Of a stretch of DNA of 64,000 nt, positions 24,077 through 35,795 are shown in pieces (position 1 is the first letter of the stretch; each line of letters opens with the position of its first letter). The translations under genes were made by a program, and so were the position numbers. This DNA is from Streptomyces ambofaciens ATCC 23877. Its GTDB lineage: Bacteria > Actinomycetota > Actinomycetes > Streptomycetales > Streptomycetaceae. The notes under the pieces are model-generated. The model was not told the origin of the DNA, searched no databases, and saw nothing but the letters and a program-made list of their open reading frames with translations. The stretch spans positions 7,613,001 through 7,677,000 of the forward strand of contig NZ_CP012382.1 in NCBI RefSeq assembly GCF_001267885.1, in the 5' to 3' direction.

Positions 24077-24685
24077 CTAGCGGTCCGCGTCCTGTGTGCG
24101 GCCCTGGTCGACGGCCAGGCGCAGCCGGTGCAGTCCGCGGCGGGCGTGACTCTTGACCGTCCCCAGGGGCACACCCGTGCGTTCCGCGATCTGGACCTGG
24201 GTCAGGTCCTCGTAGAAGGCCATGCACAGCACCTCCCGCTGGGCGCGCGGCAGCCGGGACAGGGCGTCGACGAGGAGCACGCGGTCCAGTACGGCCTCCG
24301 GTGCCGGCTCCAGCGACCGATCGGGGTCGCAGTCGCGGGCCACCGAGTCGACGAGGGTCAGGCGCCTCGTCCTGGCGGCCAGCGCGTCGACGATCTTGCG
24401 GCGCGTGATGCCGACCAGCCACGCACCCAGCGCGCCGCGCTCCGGCCGGAAGCCCTGCCGTCCGCGCCAGGCACCGATGAACACCTGCTGGGTCACGTCC
24501 TCGGCCTCGTGCGGGTCACCGAGGGACCGGGTGGCCATGGTGTGGACGAGTGAACCCCAGTGCCGGTAGATGGCCGCGAACGCCTCTTCGTCCGCTGCGA
24601 CGAGGCCACGGGCCAGATCCTCCTCGTACCGGGTCTCCTCCGAGGGCGGGACGAGCGCGGTGGCGGGTCGCACGTTCGTGCTCAT
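24077..24685 (-). CDS. litS: LitS-like ECF sigma factor
   Basis: 202 aa; the ATG at 24685 follows AGGAGG. Sigma region 2 runs over residues ~28-95 (FAAIYRHWGSLVHTMATRSLGDPHEAEDVTQQVFIGAW) and region 4 over ~140-190 (LPRAQREVLCMAFYEDLTQVQIAERTGVPLGTVKSHARRGL). It is divergent from a MerR/B12 regulator and followed by DUF4397 and anti-sigma genes. This matches the litRQ/litSAB arrangement in which LitS directs light-induced transcription of crt genes. A palindrome (24736-24755) lies in its leader and a long inverted repeat further upstream. Confidence 0.88.
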   Translation of the reverse strand: MSTNVRPATALVPPSEETRYEEDLARGLVAADEEAFAAIYRHWGSLVHTMATRSLGDPHEAEDVTQQVFIGAWRGRQGFRPERGALGAWLVGITRRKIVDALAARTRRLTLVDSVARDCDPDRSLEPAPEAVLDRVLLVDALSRLPRAQREVLCMAFYEDLTQVQIAERTGVPLGTVKSHARRGLHRLRLAVDQGRTQDADR

Positions 24686-24735
24686 GGCCTGATTCCTCCT
24701 GCCGTGCCTCGTACGGGCACACAACGTCGTCCCGC

Positions 24736-24755
24736 GGACGGCGTGTACGCCGTCC
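24736..24755. promoter_or_regulatory. Perfect hairpin/palindrome in the litS leader
   Basis: GGACGGCG-TGTA-CGCCGTCC, 8-bp perfect arms with a 4-nt centre, 51 bp upstream of the litS start. It could be an operator or an RNA hairpin in the leader. Confidence 0.5.
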
Positions 24756-24791
24756 TGTCCTGCGGGGTTGCCGTACGTGACTCCAGTCTTG

Positions 24792-24832
24792 GACGCACGA
24801 ACGACGCAGGCAACATGCGTCGGTTGTGCGTC
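24792..24832. promoter_or_regulatory. Long inverted repeat upstream of litR, candidate LitR operator
   Basis: Two 17-bp arms (24792-24808 and 24816-24832), complementary at 15 of 17 positions around a 7-nt spacer; the core half-site is GACGCAC. The downstream arm ends 13 bp before the litR ATG. Size and position fit an autoregulatory site of a MerR-type dimer or tetramer. Confidence 0.65.
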
Positions 24833-24845
24833 GTACAGTGAGGTC

Positions 24846-25853
24846 ATGAGTGTCCTTGTGGACGGTGACGACGAACGGGACGGCCGGGGCGGAGCGGAGG
24901 GCGGCGGGCTGACCACCGGGGAGGTGGCCAGGCGACTGGGCGTGGCGCCCACCACGGTCCGCACCTGGGACCGCCGCTACGGACTCGGGCCCGAGGCGCA
25001 CACCGGAGGGCGGCACCGACGCTGGACCCCCGGGGACGTGGCGCGGCTGGAGCGGATGTGCGCGTTGACGGCGACCGGACTGCCGCCCGCCGAGGCCGCC
25101 CGGCTGGCGCGCCGCGAACAGACGCGGGCCCCGGCTCCCCGCCCTCCGGCGGGTTCCGGCGGGACCGGCGCCCCGGCCCGCGGTCGCAGCCGGGCGGGCA
25201 GCGGGCTGCGGTTGGGTGACGTGCGTCAGGAGTGCAAAGGCATCGCCCGTGCCGCCCTGCGTCTCGACGCCGCCGCGCTGGACGAACTGCTGCTCACCTC
25301 GATCGCGGAGCACGGACTGGTGGCCGCCTGGACCGAGGTGATCGTGCCGACGCTCCAGGCCGTCGGCCGCAAGTGGGAGACGTCGGGCGAGAAGTACGTC
25401 GAGGTCGAGCACTTCCTGTCCTGGCACGTCTCCGGCGCGCTGCGGCGCAGCACGTCCGCCACGGTCGCCGACCGCCCCGGCGCCACCACGCTGCTCGCCT
25501 GCGTGCCGGGGGAGAACCACACGCTGCCGCTGGAAGTGCTGTCGGCCGCCCTCACCGAGCGGGGCCTCCCGGTGCGCATGTTCGGCGGTGCCCTGCCGGT
25601 CGAGTCCCTCGTCGCGGCGGTGCGCAGGACCGGGCCGGCCGCGGTGGGGCTGTGGGCGCAGTCGCGCACCACCGCCAGCAGGCCGCTGGCCCAGCACGTG
25701 GCCGCGATGGAGTGGGGGGTGCGCGGTGCCCGCCGCAGGCCGGTCGTCCTGACCCTCGGTCCCGGCTGGACGGGGCAGAGGGCGGCCGGTCTGGCGCGCC
25801 CGGCGGGACTCGCCGAGGCCGTCGCCGCGGTGGAGTCGGCGCTGTCACGGTGA
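24846..25853 (+). CDS. litR: LitR-like MerR regulator with cobalamin-binding domain (light sensor)
   Basis: 335 aa. The MerR winged helix is at residues ~22-72 (LTTGEVARRLGVAPTTVRTWDRRYG). A four-helix B12 cap follows, with tryptophan and Glu-His (W-x10-E-H in WETSGEKYVEVEHF). A Rossmann domain carries the lower-ligand type His in PGENHTLPLEVL. Known of LitR/CarH: adenosylcobalamin holds the DNA-bound form in the dark, and light releases it to open lit and crt promoters. The W-EH spacing is one residue longer than the W-x9-EH of CarH proteins. The first unit of a tandem repeat overlaps the stop codon, and litQ, expected next, is missing. Confidence 0.88.
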   Translation: MSVLVDGDDERDGRGGAEGGGLTTGEVARRLGVAPTTVRTWDRRYGLGPEAHTGGRHRRWTPGDVARLERMCALTATGLPPAEAARLARREQTRAPAPRPPAGSGGTGAPARGRSRAGSGLRLGDVRQECKGIARAALRLDAAALDELLLTSIAEHGLVAAWTEVIVPTLQAVGRKWETSGEKYVEVEHFLSWHVSGALRRSTSATVADRPGATTLLACVPGENHTLPLEVLSAALTERGLPVRMFGGALPVESLVAAVRRTGPAAVGLWAQSRTTASRPLAQHVAAMEWGVRGARRRPVVLTLGPGWTGQRAAGLARPAGLAEAVAAVESALSR

Positions 25854-25963
25854 CGCGTCCTCCGCCCGGACGGTGACGCGTCCTCCGCCCGGACGGTGAC
25901 GCGTCCTCCACTCGGACGGTGACGCGTCCTCCACTCGGGACGGTGACGCGCCGTCCGCTCGGA
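25848..25963. repeat. Five tandem 23-bp repeats
   Basis: The unit begins CGGTGACGCGTCCTCC and ends in a CGGA. Units start at 25848, 25871, 25894, 25917 (24 bp) and 25941. Units 1 and 2 are identical and units 3 and 4 differ by one extra G. The array starts six bases before the litR coding sequence ends, so the last litR codons and its stop lie in unit 1. Confidence 0.9.
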
Positions 25964-26725
25964 CACGGCGGGCGGGCACCCGGTACCGGGTAGCCAGGCG
26001 CCTCGCCTCGCAGACGTCCCGACACGGGCGGGCGCCCTGCGGTACGGGCCTCCCGGGTCACGGGCTCCTCGCGGCGCGGGCTCCTCGCGACACGGGCGCC
26101 GCGCGACACGGGCGCCGCGCGAGCCGGGCACCGCGAGAGCCGGCCATCCGTGTCACGGGTCGCCCGGCGCGCCCCGGCGGCAACCGTGGCCGCCGGACCA
26201 CGGGACGGTTCCCCCGCCCGGCCGATGCCAGGTTGCGCCGATGCCGGGCGCGAGGTGCCTGGCGCGGACACCGCGCCGGATTCCGCGCCCCTTCCGGCGT
26301 CCACGGCACAGCCGAGCCGTGCCCCCGCGCGACCGGAATCGGACGGGGCCGCCAGGCGCGCCGCGCGGGGAGTACCCGCCGCCCTGGGGTACTGGTGGCG
26401 TCGGTAGGTCAGTCGAGGTCGCCGCATCCAGGGACGGTCGGCGGCCGGAAAGAGGGATCGACGGCGAGCGGTCCGTCGACCCCGGGCTGGAGCGAAGCGT
26501 GGAACTGAGCGGCGCGTGTGTGCCGGTGACCGGTGCCGGAGGACCGGAGCCCCGTGCCCGGCCCCTCGGCACCTGCTGCACCGACCGATCCCCGGCGGGC
26601 GCGGCCCCGCCGCGGGCGGGCGGCGCCCCGCGTCGGACGGCGGACCCCGTCCCGGGCGTACCGGCAGCCGATGCCGGCCTCCCGCGCCCCGGCCCGGACC
26701 GTACGCCCGTCGAACGGCGGACCCG
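25854..26725. other. 872-bp region without a recognisable gene (place of litQ)
   Basis: Between litR and crtY. The open frames crossing it have no recognisable protein similarity and are GC-driven. It holds two tandem repeat arrays (25848-25963 and 26061-26155). S. coelicolor has litQ here. No clear promoter for crtY could be read, although it must lie in this stretch. Confidence 0.7.
26061..26155. repeat. Tandem 16-bp repeats
   Basis: Five 16-bp units of the form CGGGCnCCkCGCGrsv start at 26061, 26077, 26093, 26109 and 26125, with a degenerate 15-bp sixth. Adjacent units are more alike than distant ones, as expected for stepwise duplication. Confidence 0.8.
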
Positions 26726-27940
26726 ATGACCTCCTCGCCCGACGACACGTCCGACGTGGTCGTCCTCGGTGGCGGCGCGGCCGGACTCAGCCTCGCGCAC
26801 CGGCTGACCGAGACCGGGACCGCCAGCGTGACCGTGGTCGAGCCGCCGGACGGCCCGTCGCGCCCGGCGGAGCGCACCTGGTGCTACTGGGACCAGGACC
26901 CGGGCGACCTCGACGACGCCGTCACCAAGTCGTGGTCCGTGCTGCGCGTGCACGGCGCCGACGGCCGGCAGGTCACCGTCGACCCGGCCCCCCTGACGTA
27001 CCGCATGGTGCGCTCCACGTCGTTCGAGCGACTGGTCCACACCCGGCTGGCCCGTTCACCCGGCGGGCGCCTCCTGCGGGCGACGGCGGACACGGTGCGC
27101 GACGTGCCCGGCGGCGCCGAGATCCGCTGCACCCTCCCCGGGGGGCGCCCCCTGACCCTGCGTGCCCGGCGTGTCTTCGACTCACGGCCGCTGCGCGCCC
27201 TGCCGCCGGCCCGGACACAACTGCTGCAGCACTTCCGCGGCTGGTTCGTACGCACCGCCACCGAACGCTTCGATCCCGCGGTCGCCGACCTGATGGACTT
27301 CCGGGTGCCCCAGCCGGCGCACGGGCTCGCCTTCGGCTACGTCCTGCCGCTGACCCCGGACCGGGCGCTCGTGGAGTACACCGAGTTCTCCCGCACCGCG
27401 CTCACCACCCAGGAGTACGAGACGGCGCTCGGCCACTACTGCACCGACATCCTGGGCCTGGGCACGCTCACCGTGGAGCGGACGGAGCAGGGCGCGATCC
27501 CGATGACCGACGCCCGCTTCCCGCGGCGGGCCGGCAAGGCGGTCTTCCGGATCGGCACCGCCGGCGGCGCCACCCGACCGGCCACCGGCTACACCTTCGC
27601 CGCGGTGCAACGGCACAGCAGGGCCATCGCCGCCGCGCTGCGCGAGGGGCACGGGACCGTCCCCGCGCCCCACGGGCGGCGCGCACTGGCCATGGACGCG
27701 ATGCTGCTGCGCGCCCTGGACACCGGGCGGATCGACGGCCCGGACTTCTTCACCGGCCTGTTCCGCGGCGTCCCGGCGGAGCGGCTGCTGCGCTTCCTCG
27801 ACGGCGCCACCTCACTCGGGGAGGAATGGCGCATCGGGCTGCGCACCCCCGTCCGCCCGATGCTCCGCACGGCAGTCGAACTGCCCTTCCTCCCCCGCCG
27901 CTCCCGGACCGACGCACGAAACGGAGACAACCACCGATGA
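26726..27940 (+). CDS. crtY: Lycopene beta-cyclase
   Basis: 404 aa from the ATG at 26726. The N-terminal FAD/NAD-binding motif VVVLGGGAAGLSLAHRL is followed by ERTWCYWDQDPGDLD, typical of CrtY-type lycopene cyclases, and FADFR-like MDFRVPQ further in. The C-terminal half has the ATGYTFAAVQRHS region seen in the family (here TRPATGYTFAAVQRHSRAI). It converts lycopene to beta-carotene at the membrane. It is the first gene of crtYTU, overlapping crtT by ATGA (27937-27940). Since phytoene synthase and desaturase genes are absent from the locus, its substrate must come from elsewhere or not at all. Confidence 0.9.
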   Translation: MTSSPDDTSDVVVLGGGAAGLSLAHRLTETGTASVTVVEPPDGPSRPAERTWCYWDQDPGDLDDAVTKSWSVLRVHGADGRQVTVDPAPLTYRMVRSTSFERLVHTRLARSPGGRLLRATADTVRDVPGGAEIRCTLPGGRPLTLRARRVFDSRPLRALPPARTQLLQHFRGWFVRTATERFDPAVADLMDFRVPQPAHGLAFGYVLPLTPDRALVEYTEFSRTALTTQEYETALGHYCTDILGLGTLTVERTEQGAIPMTDARFPRRAGKAVFRIGTAGGATRPATGYTFAAVQRHSRAIAAALREGHGTVPAPHGRRALAMDAMLLRALDTGRIDGPDFFTGLFRGVPAERLLRFLDGATSLGEEWRIGLRTPVRPMLRTAVELPFLPRRSRTDARNGDNHR

Positions 27941-28668
27941 GCCTGCTGCGCGACCACGACCTGGCCCGCGCCTTCGACCACGCCTCCCACACCTACGACC
28001 GCCTCACCTCGCTCAATCCCGGCTACCGCACCGACCTCCTGCGCTCGGCCCGCCGTCTCCGGCTCCCCGGCGAAGGGGCCGGGCTGCGCGTGCTCGATCT
28101 CGGCTGCGGTACCGGCGCCTCCACCCTCGCCCTGCTCAGGGCCGCGCCCCGCGCCCGGATCACCGCCGTGGACGCGTCGGCGGGCATGCTGCGCCGCGCA
28201 CTGGCCAAGCCGTGGCCCGCACGCGTGCGCTTCCTGCACCTGACCGCGGAGGAGGTCGCGACGGCCGGCGAAGGCCCCTTCGACGCGGTCTTCGCCGCCT
28301 ACCTGTTCCGGAACGTCACCGACCCGGACGCGGTCCTCGGGAGCGTGCGGACCCTGCTGCGGCCGGGCGGCCGGCTCGCCGTCCACGAGTACAGCCTCAG
28401 CGGCTCACCGACGCACCGGGCCCTGTGGTCGGCGGTGTGCCACGGCCTCCTCATCCCGGCGGGCACGCTCACCGGCGACCGTGCCCTCTACCGCCACCTG
28501 CGGCACAGTGTCACCGCCTTCGACACCGCCCCCGCCTTCGCCGACCGGCTGGGGCGAGCCGGCTTCACCGGAGTCCGCGTCGCCCCGGTGGCCGGATGGC
28601 AGACGGGCATCGTGCACACCTTCCTCGCCCGCAACGGCTCGACCACGGAAACGGAGGACACCCGGTGA
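27937..28668 (+). CDS. crtT: SAM-dependent methyltransferase of the carotenoid operon
   Basis: 243 aa. The class I methyltransferase motif I is VLDLGCGTGAST (residues ~51-62) with the acidic end of strand 2 in ITAVDASAGML, motif II around FDAVFAAYLFRNV, and post-motif GGRLAVHEYS. It resembles UbiE-type enzymes. It sits between crtY and crtU with coupling at both ends (ATGA at 27937, GTGA at 28665), the position of crtT in S. griseus and S. coelicolor. Its exact role in isorenieratene synthesis has not been fixed there. Confidence 0.88.
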   Translation: MSLLRDHDLARAFDHASHTYDRLTSLNPGYRTDLLRSARRLRLPGEGAGLRVLDLGCGTGASTLALLRAAPRARITAVDASAGMLRRALAKPWPARVRFLHLTAEEVATAGEGPFDAVFAAYLFRNVTDPDAVLGSVRTLLRPGGRLAVHEYSLSGSPTHRALWSAVCHGLLIPAGTLTGDRALYRHLRHSVTAFDTAPAFADRLGRAGFTGVRVAPVAGWQTGIVHTFLARNGSTTETEDTR

Positions 28669-30236
28669 CCGCCCACCGCACCGGGGCCGCTCGACGGGGC
28701 CGTGACCGCAAGGCCGAGATCCTGACGCCCCCACCCGGCAGGGACCGCTTCCGGCGCGGGGACGCGCCGTCCGTCGCGGTGATCGGTGGCGGGATCGCCG
28801 GTCTCGCCGCGGCCACCCTGCTGGCCGAGCGCGGTGCCCGCGTGACCCTGTACGAGAAGGAGGACGCGCTCGGCGGCCGGCTCTCCGGCGGGCCCACCAG
28901 GCTGGCGGACGGCTCCCCGGCGACCATGACCCGAGGGTTCCACGCCTTCTTCCGCCAGTACTACAACCTTCGCGGTCTGCTCCGGCGCACCGACCCGTCC
29001 CTCGCGCGGCTCACCCCGCTGCCCGACTACCCCCTGCGGCACAGCGGCGGCCTGACGGACAGCTTCGCCCGAGTCCCGAGGACACCGCCGTTCAGCGCGC
29101 TCGGCTTCGTCGCCCTGAGCCCCACGTTCGGCTGGCGGGACCTGGCCGCCATGGACGCCCGGGCCGCGCTGCCCCTGCTCGACGTGCGCGTGCCGGAGGT
29201 CTACGAGCGTTTCGACGAGGTCACCGCCACCGGGTTCCTGGACAGCGTGCGCTTCCCGGAAGCCGCCCACCACCTGGCGTTCGAGGTGTTCTCGCGCAGC
29301 TTCTTCGCCGACCCGCGGGAGCTCTCCGCCGCCGAACTGCTGCTGATGTTCCACATCTACTTCCTCGGGTCGTCCGAGGGCCTGCTCTTCGACGTACCGA
29401 GCGACCCCTTTCCCCAGGCGCTCTGGGATCCGCTGGGCGACTACCTCCAGCGCCTCGGGGCGGACATCCGCACCGGCACCCCCGTGACCGACGTGGTCCC
29501 CCTCGACGACGGAGGTGCGCACGTGCGCACCGACGCGGACGCCCGGCGCCACCAGGCCGTGGTGCTCGCCCTCGACACCCGCGGCCTGCGCCGGATCGTC
29601 AGCGAGTCACCCCGTCTGGGCACGTCCGGCTGGCGCGCCGGCATCGCCGCCCTGCGCACCGCGCCGCCCTTCCTCGTCTCCCGGCTCTGGCTCGACCGGC
29701 CGGTCCGCACCGACCGTCCCGGTTTCCTCGGCACCAGCGGCTACGACGGACTGGACAACATCAGCGTCCTGGAACGGTACGAGGGCGAGGCCGCCCGCTG
29801 GGCCGGGCGGAACGGAGGGTCGGTCGTGGAGCTGCACGCCTACGCCGTGGACACCGGCGCGGAACCGAAGAAGGTGCAGGACCTGCTTGTCGACCAGCTG
29901 CACCGGGTGTATCCGGAGACCCGCGAGGCGCGCGTCGTCGACGCCCGGCACGAATGGCGCTCGGACTGCCCGCTCTTCGCGGTCGGCTCCCACCGGCGCC
30001 GCCCCACCGTACGCACCCCCCACCCCTGGCTGACCCTGGCCGGCGACGCGATCCGCTGCGACCTGCCCGTCGCCCTCATGGAACGCGCCGTCACCACCGG
30101 GTTCCTGGCGGCGAACGCGCTGCTCGCCGACCGGGGGGTGCGGGGCCAGGTGCTGTGGACGGTGCCCCGGACGGGACGCTCCGCCGCACTGAGGGCCCTC
30201 GGTGCCGTCGCCGGACGGGGCCGGGGCGGCCGCTGA
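28665..30236 (+). CDS. crtU: Beta-carotene desaturase/methyltransferase (isorenieratene synthase)
   Basis: 523 aa from the GTG at 28665 (GTGA overlap with crtT). The FAD-binding motif VAVIGGGIAGLAAATLLAERGA near residues 36-58 is followed by YEKEDALGGRLSG. The stretch TRGFHAFFRQYYNLRGLLRR distinguishes CrtU from CrtI. The C-terminal FAD contact is PWLTLAGDAI. It turns the beta-ionone rings of beta-carotene into aromatic rings to give isorenieratene. It is last in crtYTU and ends 34 bp before a strong bidirectional terminator. Confidence 0.9.
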   Translation: MTAHRTGAARRGRDRKAEILTPPPGRDRFRRGDAPSVAVIGGGIAGLAAATLLAERGARVTLYEKEDALGGRLSGGPTRLADGSPATMTRGFHAFFRQYYNLRGLLRRTDPSLARLTPLPDYPLRHSGGLTDSFARVPRTPPFSALGFVALSPTFGWRDLAAMDARAALPLLDVRVPEVYERFDEVTATGFLDSVRFPEAAHHLAFEVFSRSFFADPRELSAAELLLMFHIYFLGSSEGLLFDVPSDPFPQALWDPLGDYLQRLGADIRTGTPVTDVVPLDDGGAHVRTDADARRHQAVVLALDTRGLRRIVSESPRLGTSGWRAGIAALRTAPPFLVSRLWLDRPVRTDRPGFLGTSGYDGLDNISVLERYEGEAARWAGRNGGSVVELHAYAVDTGAEPKKVQDLLVDQLHRVYPETREARVVDARHEWRSDCPLFAVGSHRRRPTVRTPHPWLTLAGDAIRCDLPVALMERAVTTGFLAANALLADRGVRGQVLWTVPRTGRSAALRALGAVAGRGRGGR

Positions 30237-30269
30237 CCGGACCGGCCCCGCGGCACGCCGGGAACGCCG

Positions 30270-30306
30270 GGAGGCGCCGGGGACGGCTGCCCGCCCCGGC
30301 GCCTCC
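30270..30306. terminator. Bidirectional terminator between crtU and crtE
   Basis: A perfect 13-bp stem, GGAGGCGCCGGGG (30270-30282) with CCCCGGCGCCTCC (30294-30306), and an 11-nt loop. It ends immediately before the crtE stop codon. There is no U-tract, as is common in this genus. Confidence 0.8.
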
Positions 30307-31449
30307 TCAGCGCTCGTCCTGAGCGCGACGCGGTGCCACGCCCGACGCGCGTTCGACCAGCGCGGCGAACTCCTGCCGTACGGCCAGGGGAGCGTCGGCG
30401 CGTGCGAAGTGCCGGAGGCCGGCGGCCGCCAGCTCACCGATCTTCGCCTCCACCGCCTCCCGGGCGCCGGTGCGCTCCAGCGCCGCCCGTATCCGCTCGA
30501 CCGCGTACTCCGACCCGGTGTCCGCGTCCGGCGCGAGTACGGCGGCGGCCTGGTGGTCCGCGGTGGCGTCGGCGGTCCGGTGCGCGACGGCCAGGAGGTA
30601 GGTGAGCTTGCGCGACCGCAGGTCGTCGCCGGCCGGCTTCCCGGTCAGCGCCGGGTCACCGAAGGCGCCGAGGAGGTCGTCGCGGAGCTGGAACGCCAGA
30701 CCGGCGCACCGGCCGGCCATGCGCAGCGCCTCCACCGTGCCCTCGTCGGCTCCGGCGAGCGACGCGCCCAGGGCGAGGGGCCGGGCGACCGTGTACAGCG
30801 CGCTCTTCAGGGTGGCGACGGTCAGGGCCTCGTCGACACCGGACGAACGGGCGGCCTGGGCGTGCAGGTCCAGGTACTGCCCCGCGACCATCTCGGTGCG
30901 CATCGCCCGCCACTCCTCGTGCAGGCGCGGACCGTGCGGCGTCCCGAGGGCCGTCTCCGTCAGCAGGTCGTCCGCCCACACCAGCGCCAGGTCACCGGCG
31001 AGCACGGCGGCGGAGGTCCCGAACGTCTCCGCCGACCCGTGCATGCCCGCGGCCCAGTGCCCGCGGGCCAACTCGACGTGCAGGGCCGGGGCGCCCCTGC
31101 GTTGCAGTGACCCGTCCATCACGTCGTCGTGCACGAGGGCGCAGGCCTGGAGCAGTTCGAGCGCGGCTCCGACGCGCAGCACCGCCGCGGGGTCGCCCGA
31201 ACCGCCCGCCGCCCGCCAGCCGCAGCAGGCGAAAGCCGTACGCAGCCGCTTTCCGCCCCGTGCGACCAGCGCGGCGACCCGGTCGGCCACGTCCCGGGCG
31301 AAGACGGGATCGACCGCGCGGGAGTGACGCAGACGCGCGTCGAGAACCTCCTGGAGGACGCTGCCCACGGCGTCCGTCGCAGCGAGCGCGGTGAGGGGGT
31401 CGTCGACGGCCCCGGCGGGTGCGGGAGCCGTCGTCGGCGGTCCGAGCAT
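30307..31449 (-). CDS. crtE: Geranylgeranyl diphosphate synthase
   Basis: 380 aa from the ATG at 31449, preferred over the ATG at 31476 because AAGGGG is well spaced only for it. The first Asp-rich motif is Asp108-Asp-Val-Met-Asp112 in ALVHDDVMDG. The second is LRDDLLGAFGD. GGKRLR near the N-terminus binds diphosphate. It condenses IPP with allylic diphosphates to C20 GGPP, the first committed precursor. In the known crtEIBV operon crtI, crtB and crtV follow; here the gene runs straight into the terminator and the convergent crtU. Confidence 0.9.
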   Translation of the reverse strand: MLGPPTTAPAPAGAVDDPLTALAATDAVGSVLQEVLDARLRHSRAVDPVFARDVADRVAALVARGGKRLRTAFACCGWRAAGGSGDPAAVLRVGAALELLQACALVHDDVMDGSLQRRGAPALHVELARGHWAAGMHGSAETFGTSAAVLAGDLALVWADDLLTETALGTPHGPRLHEEWRAMRTEMVAGQYLDLHAQAARSSGVDEALTVATLKSALYTVARPLALGASLAGADEGTVEALRMAGRCAGLAFQLRDDLLGAFGDPALTGKPAGDDLRSRKLTYLLAVAHRTADATADHQAAAVLAPDADTGSEYAVERIRAALERTGAREAVEAKIGELAAAGLRHFARADAPLAVRQEFAALVERASGVAPRRAQDER

Positions 31450-31472
31450 GCACAACCCCTTCTCACGTCCGG

Positions 31473-31851
31473 TCATCTGTACGACGATGCTTCCGCCGAG
31501 TGCCCTCGTGCGGATGCGCCGATACCTGTCCGGTACGGCGCCCGTCCCGGCCCCGCACCCCGGTGATCCCCGGCGCGCGCCTCACGGCGGTGCACCGGAC
31601 GCCCCCGTGCCGCCCGGTCCAGGCCCTCGCGGTAGGTGTCGGCGCCGACGTACGTGACGCGTTCGCCGAGCTCCGCCGCCCGGTGGCGCATCGCGGACAG
31701 CACCAGGTGCGCCTCGGCCCGGTGGAAGCGGCGCCGCCGGAACACCGAGCGGGCCTCGATGACGAGGACGGGCGTGTCGCGGCCGGGGCCCGCCTCGTCC
31801 GGGGCGAGGAAGTGGGGGGCCGAGCTGATCGCCGAAGAGCCGGTGCACCAC
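31473..31851 (-). pseudogene. Truncated, frameshifted remnant of an FeS-type photolyase/cryptochrome
   Basis: After a GTG-GTG at 31851 with GAGGAGG upstream, one frame reads VHRLFGDQLGP. After a run of six C (about 31822) the next frame continues HFLAP, then VLVIEARSVFRRRRFHRAEA and HLVLSAMRHRAAELGER. This is the N-terminus of the FeS-BCP photolyase-related family (normally about 500 aa). One C too many explains the shift. Similarity ends near residue 85 (YVGADTYREGL) and the frame stops at 31473, directly before crtE. Most of the gene is therefore deleted. It lies 10 bp after phr, so both were probably one operon. Confidence 0.75.
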
Positions 31852-31861
31852 CGCTGCCTCC

Positions 31862-33235
31862 TCAGTCGCGCCCGCGGGCGTGCCGGAACCGGTCCAGCCC
31901 GTCGGCGAGGTCGATGAGCGGGGCGGGGTAATCGAGCGCGGCGCGCTGATCCTCCGGGAGCCGCCAGGGCTCGTGCACCCTCTTCCCGTCCACGTCCCTC
32001 AGTTCGGGCACCCAGCGGTGCACGTAGGCGCCGTCGGGATCGAAGCGCCTGCCCTGCACCACGGGGTTGAGGACGCGGTGGGGCCGGGTGTCGGTGCCGG
32101 TACCGGCGACCCACTGCCAGTTGAGCTGATTGTTGACGATGTCGCCGTCCACGAGGAGGTCCAGGAAGTGCCGGGCGCCGATCCGCCAGTCCACGTACAG
32201 CGTCTTGGTCAGGAAGCTCGCCACCAGCAGGCGCGCCCGGTTGTGCATCCAGCCCTCGTGACGCAACTGGCGCATGGCCGCGTCGACGACGGGATACCCC
32301 GTGCGTCCCTCCCGCCACGCGGAGATGTCCGCGGCGGCGTCCTTCTCGCCCCGCCAGTGGTCGTGGCGCGTCCGGTAGTCCTCCGCGGACGCCTTCGGCC
32401 GCGCGGCCAGCACCTGGTGGTGGAAGTCCCGCCAGCACAGCTGACGCACGAACGCCTCCGCTCCGGGGCCGCCCCGCCTACGGGCCCGGTGCACGAGCTC
32501 CACCGCTGAGAGAGCCCCGAAGTGGAGGTACGGCGACAGCCTCGAGGTCGCGTCCCCCGCCAGGTCGTCGTGCCGGTCCTCGTAGGCGGACATCCCGGCC
32601 CGCGACCACAGCGAGAACCGGTCACGCCCCGCCGTCTCCCCTCCGTCCGGAAGACCCGGCGAGGTGCCCGGTACCTCCGCGCGGTCGGGCAGTGGGCCGC
32701 CGCGCACACCGTCGGGGACGCGCACGGTACGCGGCGCGCCGAAGGGCTCCCGCAGCGACTCCCGGGCCCAGCGGCGGAAGTAGGGGGTGAACACGGCGAA
32801 GTGGTCGGAACCGGCCGGCGTCACCGCACCGGGGGCGACGACGGTCGTCACGGTCTCGTGGGCGTGCAGGGCCACGCCGCTGCCGCCGAGCCCCTCGCGC
32901 AGCCGTTCCTCACGGTGGTGCGCGTAGGCGGTGACACCCGCGGCCAGATGCACCTCGCCGGCCCCGCACTCGGCCACGACCTCGCGGACCACCCGGACGA
33001 CCGGTCCCGAACGGACGACGAGCCGCCCGGCGCGACGGCGCAGCGAGGCGTCGAGGTCGTGCAGGCAGTCGGCGAGGAAGGCCCGCCGGTTGGGGGCGTC
33101 GAAGCCGGCCGCGTGGATGCCGGGATCCAGCACGAACAGCGGCACCACCTCGTCCGCCGCCCTGAGCGCGGCGCGCAGCGGCGGATGGTCGTGCAGACGC
33201 AGGTCCGCGGTGAACAGGACGACCGCGACGCTCAT
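31862..33235 (-). CDS. phr: CPD photolyase
   Basis: 457 aa. The N-terminal Rossmann antenna domain begins SVAVVLFTADLRLHDHPPL. The C-terminal FAD-binding domain has the family signature TGYPVVDAAMRQLRHEGWMHNRARLLVASFLTK and WRIGARHFLDLLVDGD, with the tryptophans of the electron-transfer chain (DWRIGAR, NWQWVAG). It repairs UV-made cyclobutane pyrimidine dimers with blue light. It follows an SDR-type gene by 30 bp on the same strand. Its place beside crtE is conserved in the light-induced locus of S. coelicolor. Confidence 0.92.
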   Translation of the reverse strand: MSVAVVLFTADLRLHDHPPLRAALRAADEVVPLFVLDPGIHAAGFDAPNRRAFLADCLHDLDASLRRRAGRLVVRSGPVVRVVREVVAECGAGEVHLAAGVTAYAHHREERLREGLGGSGVALHAHETVTTVVAPGAVTPAGSDHFAVFTPYFRRWARESLREPFGAPRTVRVPDGVRGGPLPDRAEVPGTSPGLPDGGETAGRDRFSLWSRAGMSAYEDRHDDLAGDATSRLSPYLHFGALSAVELVHRARRRGGPGAEAFVRQLCWRDFHHQVLAARPKASAEDYRTRHDHWRGEKDAAADISAWREGRTGYPVVDAAMRQLRHEGWMHNRARLLVASFLTKTLYVDWRIGARHFLDLLVDGDIVNNQLNWQWVAGTGTDTRPHRVLNPVVQGRRFDPDGAYVHRWVPELRDVDGKRVHEPWRLPEDQRAALDYPAPLIDLADGLDRFRHARGRD

Positions 33236-34901: not shown

Positions 34902-35795
34902 TCATCCGGGCGGGACCTCGTCGCCCGCCCTCCGTCCCGCCCGGCCGCCGGCGCCGAGGAGCCCCGTCGCCGAGAACGGCTCCGCGGCGGCGAGCCGCGG
35001 CAGCTCGCGCCGCGACAGCCAGGTGACGACGGGCGGCATCGCGCCGCGTACGAGCTGGGTCGAGCGCAGCCATCCCGGTACGTAGACCGACGGCCGGCGT
35101 CGCTCGACGGCGTCGACCAGCCGGCCCGCCACGTACGCCGCCGGGTACACCTTGCGCGCCGGCGGCGGCATGTGCCCGCGCAGCTCCCGCAGCACGGCTT
35201 GCTCGTCGGCGTCACGCACCATGTCGGTGTCCGTCCAGTTGATGTAGGCGATCCCCACACCCACGCGCCGATGGGCGACCTCGGCGCGCAGCGCGTGGGC
35301 GAACGACTCGACTCCGGCCTTCGAGGCGCAGTACGCGCTCATCATCGGAGCCGCTCCGATGGACGCGAGGGAGGCCACCTGCAGGAAATAGCCCCGCGTG
35401 TCGAACAGGTCGGGCAGGAACGACCGGGCGGTGACGGCGCTGCCGACGAGGTTCACCTCCACGACGCGGCGCCACACCTGGGGGTCCGACTCGGCGAAGG
35501 GACCGCCCTCGGCCACACCGGCGTTGGCGACCACCACCGACGGAGGGCCGAGTCGCGCGCGGATGTCGGCGCCCGCCAGCCTCATGCCCCGGTCGTCGGT
35601 GACGTCAACCTCCCAGCAGTCGGAGGTGCCCGGCAGCGAGTCCCTGACCAGCGCCAGCGTCCTCTCCTCACGGCCCAGCAGCGCCACCTTCGCGCCCCGT
35701 TCGACCAGGACCCGGGCCATGGCGGCGCCGAGACCGCGCGCGGCTCCGGTCACGACGGCGACGCGACCGTGCAAGGGCTTCCGGGCGACCGGCAT
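34902..35795 (-). CDS. Short-chain dehydrogenase/reductase
   Basis: 297 aa. The classical SDR cofactor motif VVTGAARGLGAAMARVL is at residues ~13-29, NAG at about 89-91, the catalytic Ser in QVASLAS and Tyr-x3-Lys in YCASKAGVE. The C-terminal ~50 residues extend beyond the core fold (VYVPGWLRSTQLV onward), a type seen in SDRs that act on lipophilic substrates. It is on the same strand as, and 106 bp from, the SDR-DUF2867 gene. The substrate is unknown. Confidence 0.88.
   Translation of the reverse strand: MPVARKPLHGRVAVVTGAARGLGAAMARVLVERGAKVALLGREERTLALVRDSLPGTSDCWEVDVTDDRGMRLAGADIRARLGPPSVVVANAGVAEGGPFAESDPQVWRRVVEVNLVGSAVTARSFLPDLFDTRGYFLQVASLASIGAAPMMSAYCASKAGVESFAHALRAEVAHRRVGVGIAYINWTDTDMVRDADEQAVLRELRGHMPPPARKVYPAAYVAGRLVDAVERRRPSVYVPGWLRSTQLVRGAMPPVVTWLSRRELPRLAAAEPFSATGLLGAGGRAGRRAGDEVPPG

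What the first reader, a model, noticed from the sequence alone, without database searches (positions are those of the whole stretch)
25854..31449. Carotenoid locus lacks crtI, crtB, crtV and litQ while its remaining order is intact
In S. coelicolor the order is phr, crtEIBV, convergent crtUTY, litQ-litR, litSAB. Here phr, crtE, crtUTY, litR and litSAB stand in the same order. Between crtE and crtU only a 70-bp terminator region remains, and between litR and crtY there is an 872-bp gene-free stretch of repeats. Without phytoene synthase and desaturase the locus alone cannot make lycopene, so CrtY, CrtT and CrtU have no local substrate. This is either a locus in decay or a rewired pathway with crtI/crtB elsewhere.
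Basis: partly seen in the sequence, partly recalled or inferred. Interest (0 to 1): 0.7.

Follow-up and report, generated by a model that had tools for sequence, protein, structure and literature searches.

The report
Carotenoid pathway split between chromosome arms
This Streptomyces appears to descend from one with two pigment gene clusters that lost opposite halves, so that one full set of genes now lies in two places 6.8 million bases apart, possibly under one light switch.

Summary
In detail: crtI, crtB and crtV are absent between crtU and crtE, and litQ between litR and crtY. The window has no N. "Decay" is not supported; "rewired" is, and the history can be read.

crtI-crtB-crtV lie intact together 6.85 Mb away on the same contig, in a second carotenoid locus (B). 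In relatives, including the nearest (G219), locus B also carries the crtY-crtU operon; here it is cleanly deleted, with the old crtI-crtY intergenic DNA left as a scar. Locus A (the window) has crtIBV in 18 of 20 other A loci fetched; the other 2 are contig-cut. A named relative, CCM_MD2014, still has full A plus crtVBI-Y-U at B. So one copy each of E, I, B, V, Y, T and U remains, a mosaic of two deep lineages.

Two further genomes (S. calvus T3018; unnamed G366) show different complementary partitions, so reciprocal loss recurs. A promoter motif conserved at A-type crtE/crtY promoters occurs 5 times in 8.39 Mb; three sites precede crtE, crtY and the distant crtI. The light sigma factor LitS may therefore join the halves in trans (inferred). 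Pigment production is untested.

The parts
24077..24964 (-). litS, ECF sigma factor ORF (annotated start uncertain; the domain matches begin well inside the ORF)
   Evidence: Sigma70_r2 2.3e-19 and Sigma70_r4 1.5e-16; 60-82% identical to litS of lit-linked A loci with a hit; name by synteny
24795..24840 (.). putative LitR operator between litS and litR (ACGACGCA..ATGCGTCG..TGCGTCGTA; limits approximate)
   Evidence: most conserved block in the alignment of 12 litS-litR intergenic regions; core words at 24801 (-) and 24827 (+); function inferred
24846..25853 (+). litR, MerR/B12-binding photoregulator
   Evidence: MerR_1, B12-binding_2 and B12-binding Pfam matches; CarH model far below its cut-off; mostly 72-86% identical in A loci
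25854..26725 (.). gene-free stretch where litQ stands in most A loci: tandem repeats at its left, DNA similar to the litQ-crtY intergenic region of relatives at its right
26424..26451 (+). LitS-type promoter motif GCATCC-N16-CGGAAA, 302 bp upstream of crtY
26726..27940 (+). crtY, lycopene cyclase, intact
   Evidence: PF05834 1.9e-116; the other 6 matches in the genome reach at most 27.5 bits
27937..28668 (+). crtT, methyltransferase, intact
   Evidence: UbiE-type methyltransferase matches; synteny
28665..30236 (+). crtU, FAD-dependent desaturase/methyltransferase, intact, A-type
   Evidence: PF01593 3.6e-39; CrtU tree places it in the A clade; name by synteny
30237..30306 (.). deletion junction where crtV-crtB-crtI stand in A relatives; holds a perfect 13-bp inverted repeat (arms 30270-30282 and 30294-30306), a likely two-way terminator
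   Evidence: DNA similarity to relatives stops near 30217 (30247 for one) and resumes from 30293 on; arms located; fold of 30230-30320 -57.3 kcal/mol, z -2.24, 6 of 200 shuffles as good
30307..31476 (-). crtE, polyprenyl (GGPP-type) synthase, intact
   Evidence: PF00348 5.5e-46; 60-80% identical in the 20 A loci where hit
31490..31517 (-). LitS-type promoter motif GCATCC-N16-CGGAAG upstream of crtE
31862..33235 (-). phr, deoxyribodipyrimidine photolyase
   Evidence: PRK10674 7e-85, below its curated cut-off

Best explanation
The window locus is half of a working but split isorenieratene-type carotenoid pathway. An ancestor held two redundant clusters: locus B (glycosylase - crtVBI / crtYTU - SDR - FAD oxidoreductase - SRPBCC) and locus A (lit genes - crtYTU / crtVBIE - phr). 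Redundancy was removed reciprocally: A lost crtIBV and B lost crtYTU. One intact copy each of E, I, B, V, Y, T and U remains. CrtI/CrtB made from the distant locus should supply lycopene to CrtY, CrtT and CrtU made from the window. The parts stay coordinated because LitR (light) switches on litS, and the LitS sigma factor acts in trans on three promoters: crtE and crtY here, crtI 6.85 Mb away. Shown: gene content, complementary gaps, the scar at B, the two-lineage mosaic, purifying selection. Inferred: coexistence of both clusters in this lineage, LitS use of these motifs, pigment production.
For: (1) One crtB-type and one crtI-type gene sit together on the other arm with a Rieske/DUF5914 gene at the crtV position. 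(2) The same island in seven other genomes carries crtVBI plus crtY and crtU: G219, G239, G142, G214 (= L086), G157, and named CB02414 (L072) and CCM_MD2014 (L090); crtT is there in G219, G157 and CB02414. (3) L012 aligns to G219 through the crtI-crtY intergenic region, then jumps to just after the crtU stop: about 3.75 kb deleted, scar left. (4) CCM_MD2014 has full A (L015) and, at B, crtVBI, crtY and crtU. (5) CrtU of this genome is in the A clade and CrtI in the B clade, each split 100/100. (6) dN/dS 0.10-0.40. (7) Different complementary partitions in G235 (= S. calvus T3018) and G366. (8) GCATCC-N16-CSGAAR has 5 sites in 8.39 Mb, three of them upstream of crtE, crtY and the distant crtI; the distant crtI's form CCGAAG is the commonest at crtY in 28 A loci that exclude this genome. 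(9) A passage of PMC12173525 says the S. coelicolor crtE and crtY promoters depend on LitR and LitS.
Against: No transcript, protein or pigment data. The motif is exact in only 19 of 28 crtE and 12 of 27 crtY promoters of the A loci and in 4 of 22 crtI genes without crtE upstream, this genome's own included; four of the six full B loci aligned lack that promoter segment. The reversed control pattern gives 6 genome sites, about the same total, so only the positions are informative. crtE shows more amino-acid change on the G000 side (dN 0.136-0.144 against 0.075-0.115 between relatives) and crtY slightly higher dN/dS (0.29-0.40 against 0.24-0.26), so some relaxation in A is not excluded. A could have arrived already lacking crtIBV. 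CrtU of A is not closest to the A copies of the rpoB siblings, so A's history includes transfer. The double-cluster relative lacks crtT at B.
Confidence: 0.8

Rival explanations
1. The window locus is decaying: crtIBV and litQ are gone and the rest is on its way out.
For: crtIBV and litQ are absent; crtE and slightly crtY show somewhat more change than in relatives; a really decayed B locus exists in a relative, G270, with crtV-crtI and crtY-crtU fragments.
Against: The window genes are open and full length; dN/dS 0.17-0.40 for crtY, T, U and E; the missing genes are intact elsewhere; promoter motifs and operator are kept.
Confidence: 0.07
2. Simple translocation: crtIBV was moved out of the window locus to the other arm.
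For: crtI, crtB and crtV are together and in the same order at the other site.
Against: The distant CrtI belongs to the B lineage, not to A; its neighbours are those of locus B in other species, and the site keeps the crtI-crtY intergenic relic.
Confidence: 0.03
3. Two pathways with different products: the distant locus makes lycopene or another acyclic pigment, and the window genes act on some other substrate.
For: Locus B keeps an SDR, an FAD oxidoreductase with a CrtO-type match far below its cut-off and an SRPBCC protein, which could make another product.
Against: These three genes also stay where the crt genes are gone (G160, G301, G224, G307), so they are not tied to carotenoids there; no other crtI or crtB was found for the window genes.
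Confidence: 0.1

Closest known systems
Streptomyces coelicolor crt/lit locus (crtEIBV and crtYTU, LitR, LitS; passage in PMC12173525)
   Same: Same genes, convergent operon layout, litR and litS beside it, motif-bearing crtE and crtY promoters
   Different: crtIBV and litQ absent; crtIBV supplied by a second, differently descended cluster 6.85 Mb away
[quoted passage not shown] passages seen, one of them from the abstract)
   Same: Gain or redundancy followed by lineage-specific loss
   Different: There between lineages; here reciprocal loss inside one genome between two whole clusters, leaving a chimeric pathway, seen in three genomes with three partitions
Second Streptomyces carotenoid locus (crtVBI / crtY(T)U - SDR - FAD oxidoreductase - SRPBCC), e.g. 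L072 (with crtT) and L090 (without)
   Same: The distant half of this genome's pathway sits in this island
   Different: The crtY-crtU operon is deleted here and intergenic DNA is left

Membership tests
lit-controlled Streptomyces crtEIBV-crtYTU cluster | crtE and crtYTU in convergent layout beside litR/litS and phr | tested here: met
lit-controlled Streptomyces crtEIBV-crtYTU cluster | crtI, crtB and crtV between crtU and crtE | tested here: not met
   present in 18 of 20 other A loci fetched, 2 contig-cut
lit-controlled Streptomyces crtEIBV-crtYTU cluster | litQ between litR and crtY | tested here: not met
   a 72%-identical homologue lies at G000:C1:~7.228 Mb
lit-controlled Streptomyces crtEIBV-crtYTU cluster | light-dependent carotenoid production | not testable with these tools
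   needs culture and pigment analysis
complete isorenieratene-type pathway (whole genome) | one intact gene each for crtE, I, B, V, Y, T and U | tested here: met
   crtV, crtT and crtU named by position; copy number of crtE, crtT and crtV in the whole genome not searched
reciprocal loss of two redundant clusters | complementary absences, each with relatives that carry the missing part at that site | tested here: met
reciprocal loss of two redundant clusters | pieces belong to two separate gene lineages | tested here: met
   CrtU in clade A, CrtI in clade B, 100/100
LitS regulon | LitS promoter before each of the three operons | tested here: inconclusive
   motif present at all three, but it is defined here by conservation, not by experiment

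The most novel reading that the evidence does not exclude
Because an ECF sigma factor (LitS) acts in trans, physical clustering is not needed for control of this pathway. When a resident and an incoming carotenoid cluster meet, redundancy is repeatedly resolved by reciprocal loss into chimeric pathways split between distant loci. 'Incomplete' biosynthetic clusters in Streptomyces would then at times be halves of a working pathway.
Probability: 0.5. Interest if true: 0.72.

Novelty: new variant of a known kind. Interest (0 to 1): 0.62.

Why it matters
A reader or program judging either locus alone would call it incomplete, yet the genome has a full gene set. The case shows, with scars, how two redundant biosynthetic clusters collapse into one pathway, with three different outcomes in one genus and a relative that still holds both loci. 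It makes testable whether a trans-acting light sigma factor is enough to keep a dispersed pathway together.

Tried and rejected
Assembly gap at the crtU-crtE junction: rejected (0 N; single 8.30-Mb contig). Hidden second crtB: the two other SQS_PSY matches lie beside an HpnE-like ORF, a polyprenyl synthase ORF and what I read as a squalene-hopene cyclase, so I take them as hopanoid genes (no profile was run on these ORFs). Simple translocation: spoken against by the CrtI tree. Remnants of litQ in the 872-bp stretch: tblastn at E <= 10 gave no hit there; the nearest hit is the start of crtY. Literature on split carotenoid clusters or reciprocal cluster loss in Streptomyces: the ten searches listed no paper whose title or printed abstract start describes it; I read passages of three papers only, and only open-licence PMC papers are held, so this is no proof of novelty. 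The motif was first scanned in a stricter form (CGRAA) that missed the distant crtI; I widened it to CSGAAR after seeing B loci, then found that A-locus promoters alone give that form. G349, G123 and G017 also have CrtU and CrtI apart, but on contigs that break close by; they are not counted as splits. G354 has crtEIBV and crtYTU on different contigs, without evidence of a second cluster.
Full report
WHAT IS THERE. The window is G000:C1:7613001-7677000 of a 2-contig, 8.39-Mb, 100%-complete assembly. The finding's gene order is correct: litS, litR, [872 bp], crtY-crtT-crtU, [70 bp], crtE, phr. crtY rests on PF05834 (1.9e-116), crtE on PF00348, litR on MerR plus B12-binding domains, litS on sigma-70 regions. 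crtT and crtU have family matches but no equivalog above its cut-off and are named by synteny with the lit-linked cluster. There are no N in the window. In the 70-bp gap lies a perfect 13-bp inverted repeat (arms 30270-30282 and 30294-30306) in a stretch that folds strongly.

THE MISSING GENES. Three own-genome family searches scored every first-look candidate (9 of 9, 52 of 52 and 95 of 95). SQS_PSY has 3 matches: one at G000:C1:793986-794801 and a tandem pair at 6.91 Mb that I read as hopanoid genes. Amino_oxidase has 17 matches; the strongest, at 794930-796345, adjoins the first SQS_PSY gene. With this CrtI as query, G000 has one match at E <= 1e-150 with 25 candidates scored. In L012 (G000:C1:784001-804000) the minus strand reads SRPBCC - FAD oxidoreductase - SDR - crtI - crtB - Rieske/DUF5914 - pyrimidine-dimer glycosylase. 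CrtI passes the crtI_fam cut-off (575 against 238 bits); CrtB passes no NCBIfam equivalog cut-off and is named by Pfam and place. The Rieske/DUF5914 gene holds the crtV position in the canonical loci; that it is the published crtV is by position. The only strong crtY match in the genome is in the window. CrtU has one match in G000 at E <= 1e-150 (3 candidates per genome scored).

LOCUS B IN RELATIVES. Around the same SDR/FAD island I fetched 18 unnamed loci and compared them with three named ones and L012. Five unnamed (G219, G239, G142, G214, G157) and the three named (L072, L086, L090) carry crtV, crtB, crtI, crtY and crtU beside the island; L086 is the same DNA as G214's L147, so these are seven genomes. 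crtT is present in G219, G157 and L072 and absent in G239, G142, G214 and L090, where the crtY-crtU gap is too short for it. Four (G160, G307, G301, G224) have the glycosylase near the SDR with the crt genes gone. G270 has remnants: the last 44 codons of crtV beside the first 98 of crtI, and an early part of crtY beside the last 140 codons of crtU. G307 keeps a 36-codon crtU-like piece and intergenic DNA. L150 (G176) is contig-cut, but its other contig L206 shows crtVBI, crtY and the start of crtT. Six (G241, G225, G026, G237, G085, G148) have the island without crt genes in the stretch fetched, and G259 has crt genes beyond the SDR in another layout. Of these 22 loci, only that of G000 has crtIBV without crtY-crtU.

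THE SCARS. L012 aligns to G219 (L143) from crtI through the crtI-crtY intergenic region, stops about 114 bp before the crtY hit, and resumes about 40 bp after the crtU hit: about 3.75 kb lost, intergenic DNA left. So B once held crtYTU. At A, the window aligns to relatives up to about 30217 near the crtU stop (30247 for L184) and again from 30293 or later at the crtE end, so the crtVBI block is gone. Of 20 A-type loci fetched, 18 have crtI, crtB and crtV beside crtU and 2 are contig-cut. Counter-examples among A-type loci are those of the two other split genomes, below.

BOTH TOGETHER. Streptomyces sp. CCM_MD2014 (one chromosome record) has a full A (L015) and, at B, crtVBI, crtY and crtU without crtT (L090). 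Its rpoB is 98% identical to that of G000. The rpoB tree puts G000 in a supported group of 12 (100/99) with G219, G142, G160, G270, G307, G239, G214, G301, G224, CB02414 and CCM_MD2014, in which genomes where I saw A with B gone, B alone, both, and split are intermixed. In the CrtU and CrtI trees A and B are separate clades with 100/100 support; CrtU of G000 is A and CrtI of G000 is B. CrtU of G000 groups with L016 and L020 (98/93), not with the A copies of its rpoB siblings, which suggests that A has been exchanged between species.

HOW UNUSUAL. In 392 genomes of the genus (drawn evenly from a larger group) CrtU matches in 195 at E <= 1e-150, CrtI in 194 at 1e-200 and CrtB in 197 at 1e-90. 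The listings print only about 150 places each, so placement could be judged for part. Of 115 genomes with CrtU and CrtI both printed, 108 have them within 15 kb; of 113 with CrtU and CrtB, 108; of 127 with CrtI and CrtB, 125. The exceptions are G000; G235 and G366 (below); G354 (operons on different contigs); and G123, G017 and G349, which are contig-limited. G227 lists two each of CrtU, CrtI and CrtB, a likely second double-cluster genome that I did not study; G162, G222 and G380 also list some doubles (the last two at 5 and 7% contamination).

TWO MORE PARTITIONS. G235 is Streptomyces calvus T3018 (19,001 bp identical to L067). Its B-type locus has crtY, T, U and crtB but no crtI or crtV; its A-type locus has crtE, crtI and crtV but no crtB or crtYTU. 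G366 (86% complete, 330 contigs) has at B crtY, T, U, crtB, crtV and only the last 65 codons of crtI, and at A crtE and crtI without crtB or crtV. No stop lies inside these hits. The trees put CrtI of both in clade A and CrtU of both in clade B, the reverse of G000. In each of the three genomes the six genes I, B, V, Y, T and U were found intact once, in one of the two loci. Losses are in blocks, so I give no probability. Caveats: G366 is incomplete, only 3-5 candidates per genome were scored in the genus searches, and V, T and Y were not searched in the rest of G235 and G366.

NOT DECAY. Pairwise dN/dS is 0.10-0.30 for crtI, B and V of G000 against G219 and CB02414, and 0.17-0.40 for crtY, T, U and E against L016, L020 and L171; pairs of other loci give 0.13-0.30 and 0.13-0.33. 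Against this reading, crtE has higher dN on the G000 side (0.136-0.144 against 0.075-0.115) and crtY slightly higher dN/dS (0.29-0.40 against 0.24-0.26). These pairwise values mostly reflect time before the losses, so they show open, constrained genes, not strict proof of present function.

CONTROL. A paper passage states that in S. coelicolor the crtE and crtY promoters depend on LitR and LitS (PMC12173525); another that LitR promotes transcription of litS and sigma-LitS transcribes from the crtE promoter (PMC12705666, passages). The alignment of A loci shows a conserved litS-litR operator-like block and, before crtE, GCATCC-N16-CGGAAG. In 28 A loci excluding the window, the hexamer after GCATCC-N16 is mostly CGGAAG or TGGAAG at crtE and CCGAAG or CCGAAA at crtY; the form CSGAAR occurs in 19 of 28 crtE and 12 of 27 crtY promoters. 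In the whole genome that pattern has 5 sites (reversed control: 6): window 26424 before crtY, window 31490 before crtE, G000:C1:796535-796562 before the distant crtI (GCATCC-N16-CCGAAG, about 140 bp upstream), one before a small ORF that resembles an ATP-binding anti-sigma protein by eye, and one over the start of an ORF of the other strand. Over 2.40 Mb of loci (some fetched twice) there are 73 sites: within 450 bp upstream of crtE in 33 of 84 loci, of crtY in 21 of 105, of a crtI without crtE in 4 of 22, of phr in 1 of 22, and of none of the other eleven gene kinds tested. The crtI site is shared with the full B loci L143 and L072, but four of the six full B loci aligned lack that segment. 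I conclude that trans control by LitS is likely but unproven.

VERDICT. It is a new variant of a known kind of thing (gain followed by differential loss), notable because it recurs and because one regulator may hold the halves together.

Noticed in passing
G235 (Streptomyces calvus T3018), L200 and L201: Complementary carotenoid loci: B-type has crtY,T,U,B; A-type has crtE,I,V.
   Followed up: partly
G366, L202 and L203: Third complementary partition; B-type keeps only the last 65 codons of crtI; the genome is 86% complete.
   Followed up: partly
G270, L148 8509-9940: Broken-down B locus: crtV and crtI fragments and crtY and crtU fragments side by side, with an intact A locus elsewhere.
   Followed up: partly
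L090, L145, L146, L147: B loci with crtY and crtU but no crtT between them.
   Followed up: partly
G000:C1:7228272-7229576 (L250 8272-9576): LitQ-like gene, 72% identical to LitQ of an A locus, without lit/crt neighbours in 18 kb apart from weak family matches; relocated litQ or a separate paralogue.
   Followed up: partly
window 34902-35795 and L012 12775-13668: An SDR gene beside locus A (past phr) resembles by eye the SDR of locus B.
   Followed up: no
window 25847-25964 and 26029-26135: Tandem repeats (23 bp x 5.1; 16/32 bp) where litQ stands in most relatives.
   Followed up: partly
G000:C1:1903845-1903872 (L246): Further LitS-type motif about 70 bp before a small ORF that resembles an anti-sigma-type ATP-binding protein; possible further target.
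   Followed up: no
G354, L204 and L205: crtEIBV and crtYTU on different contigs, without evidence of a second cluster.
   Followed up: no
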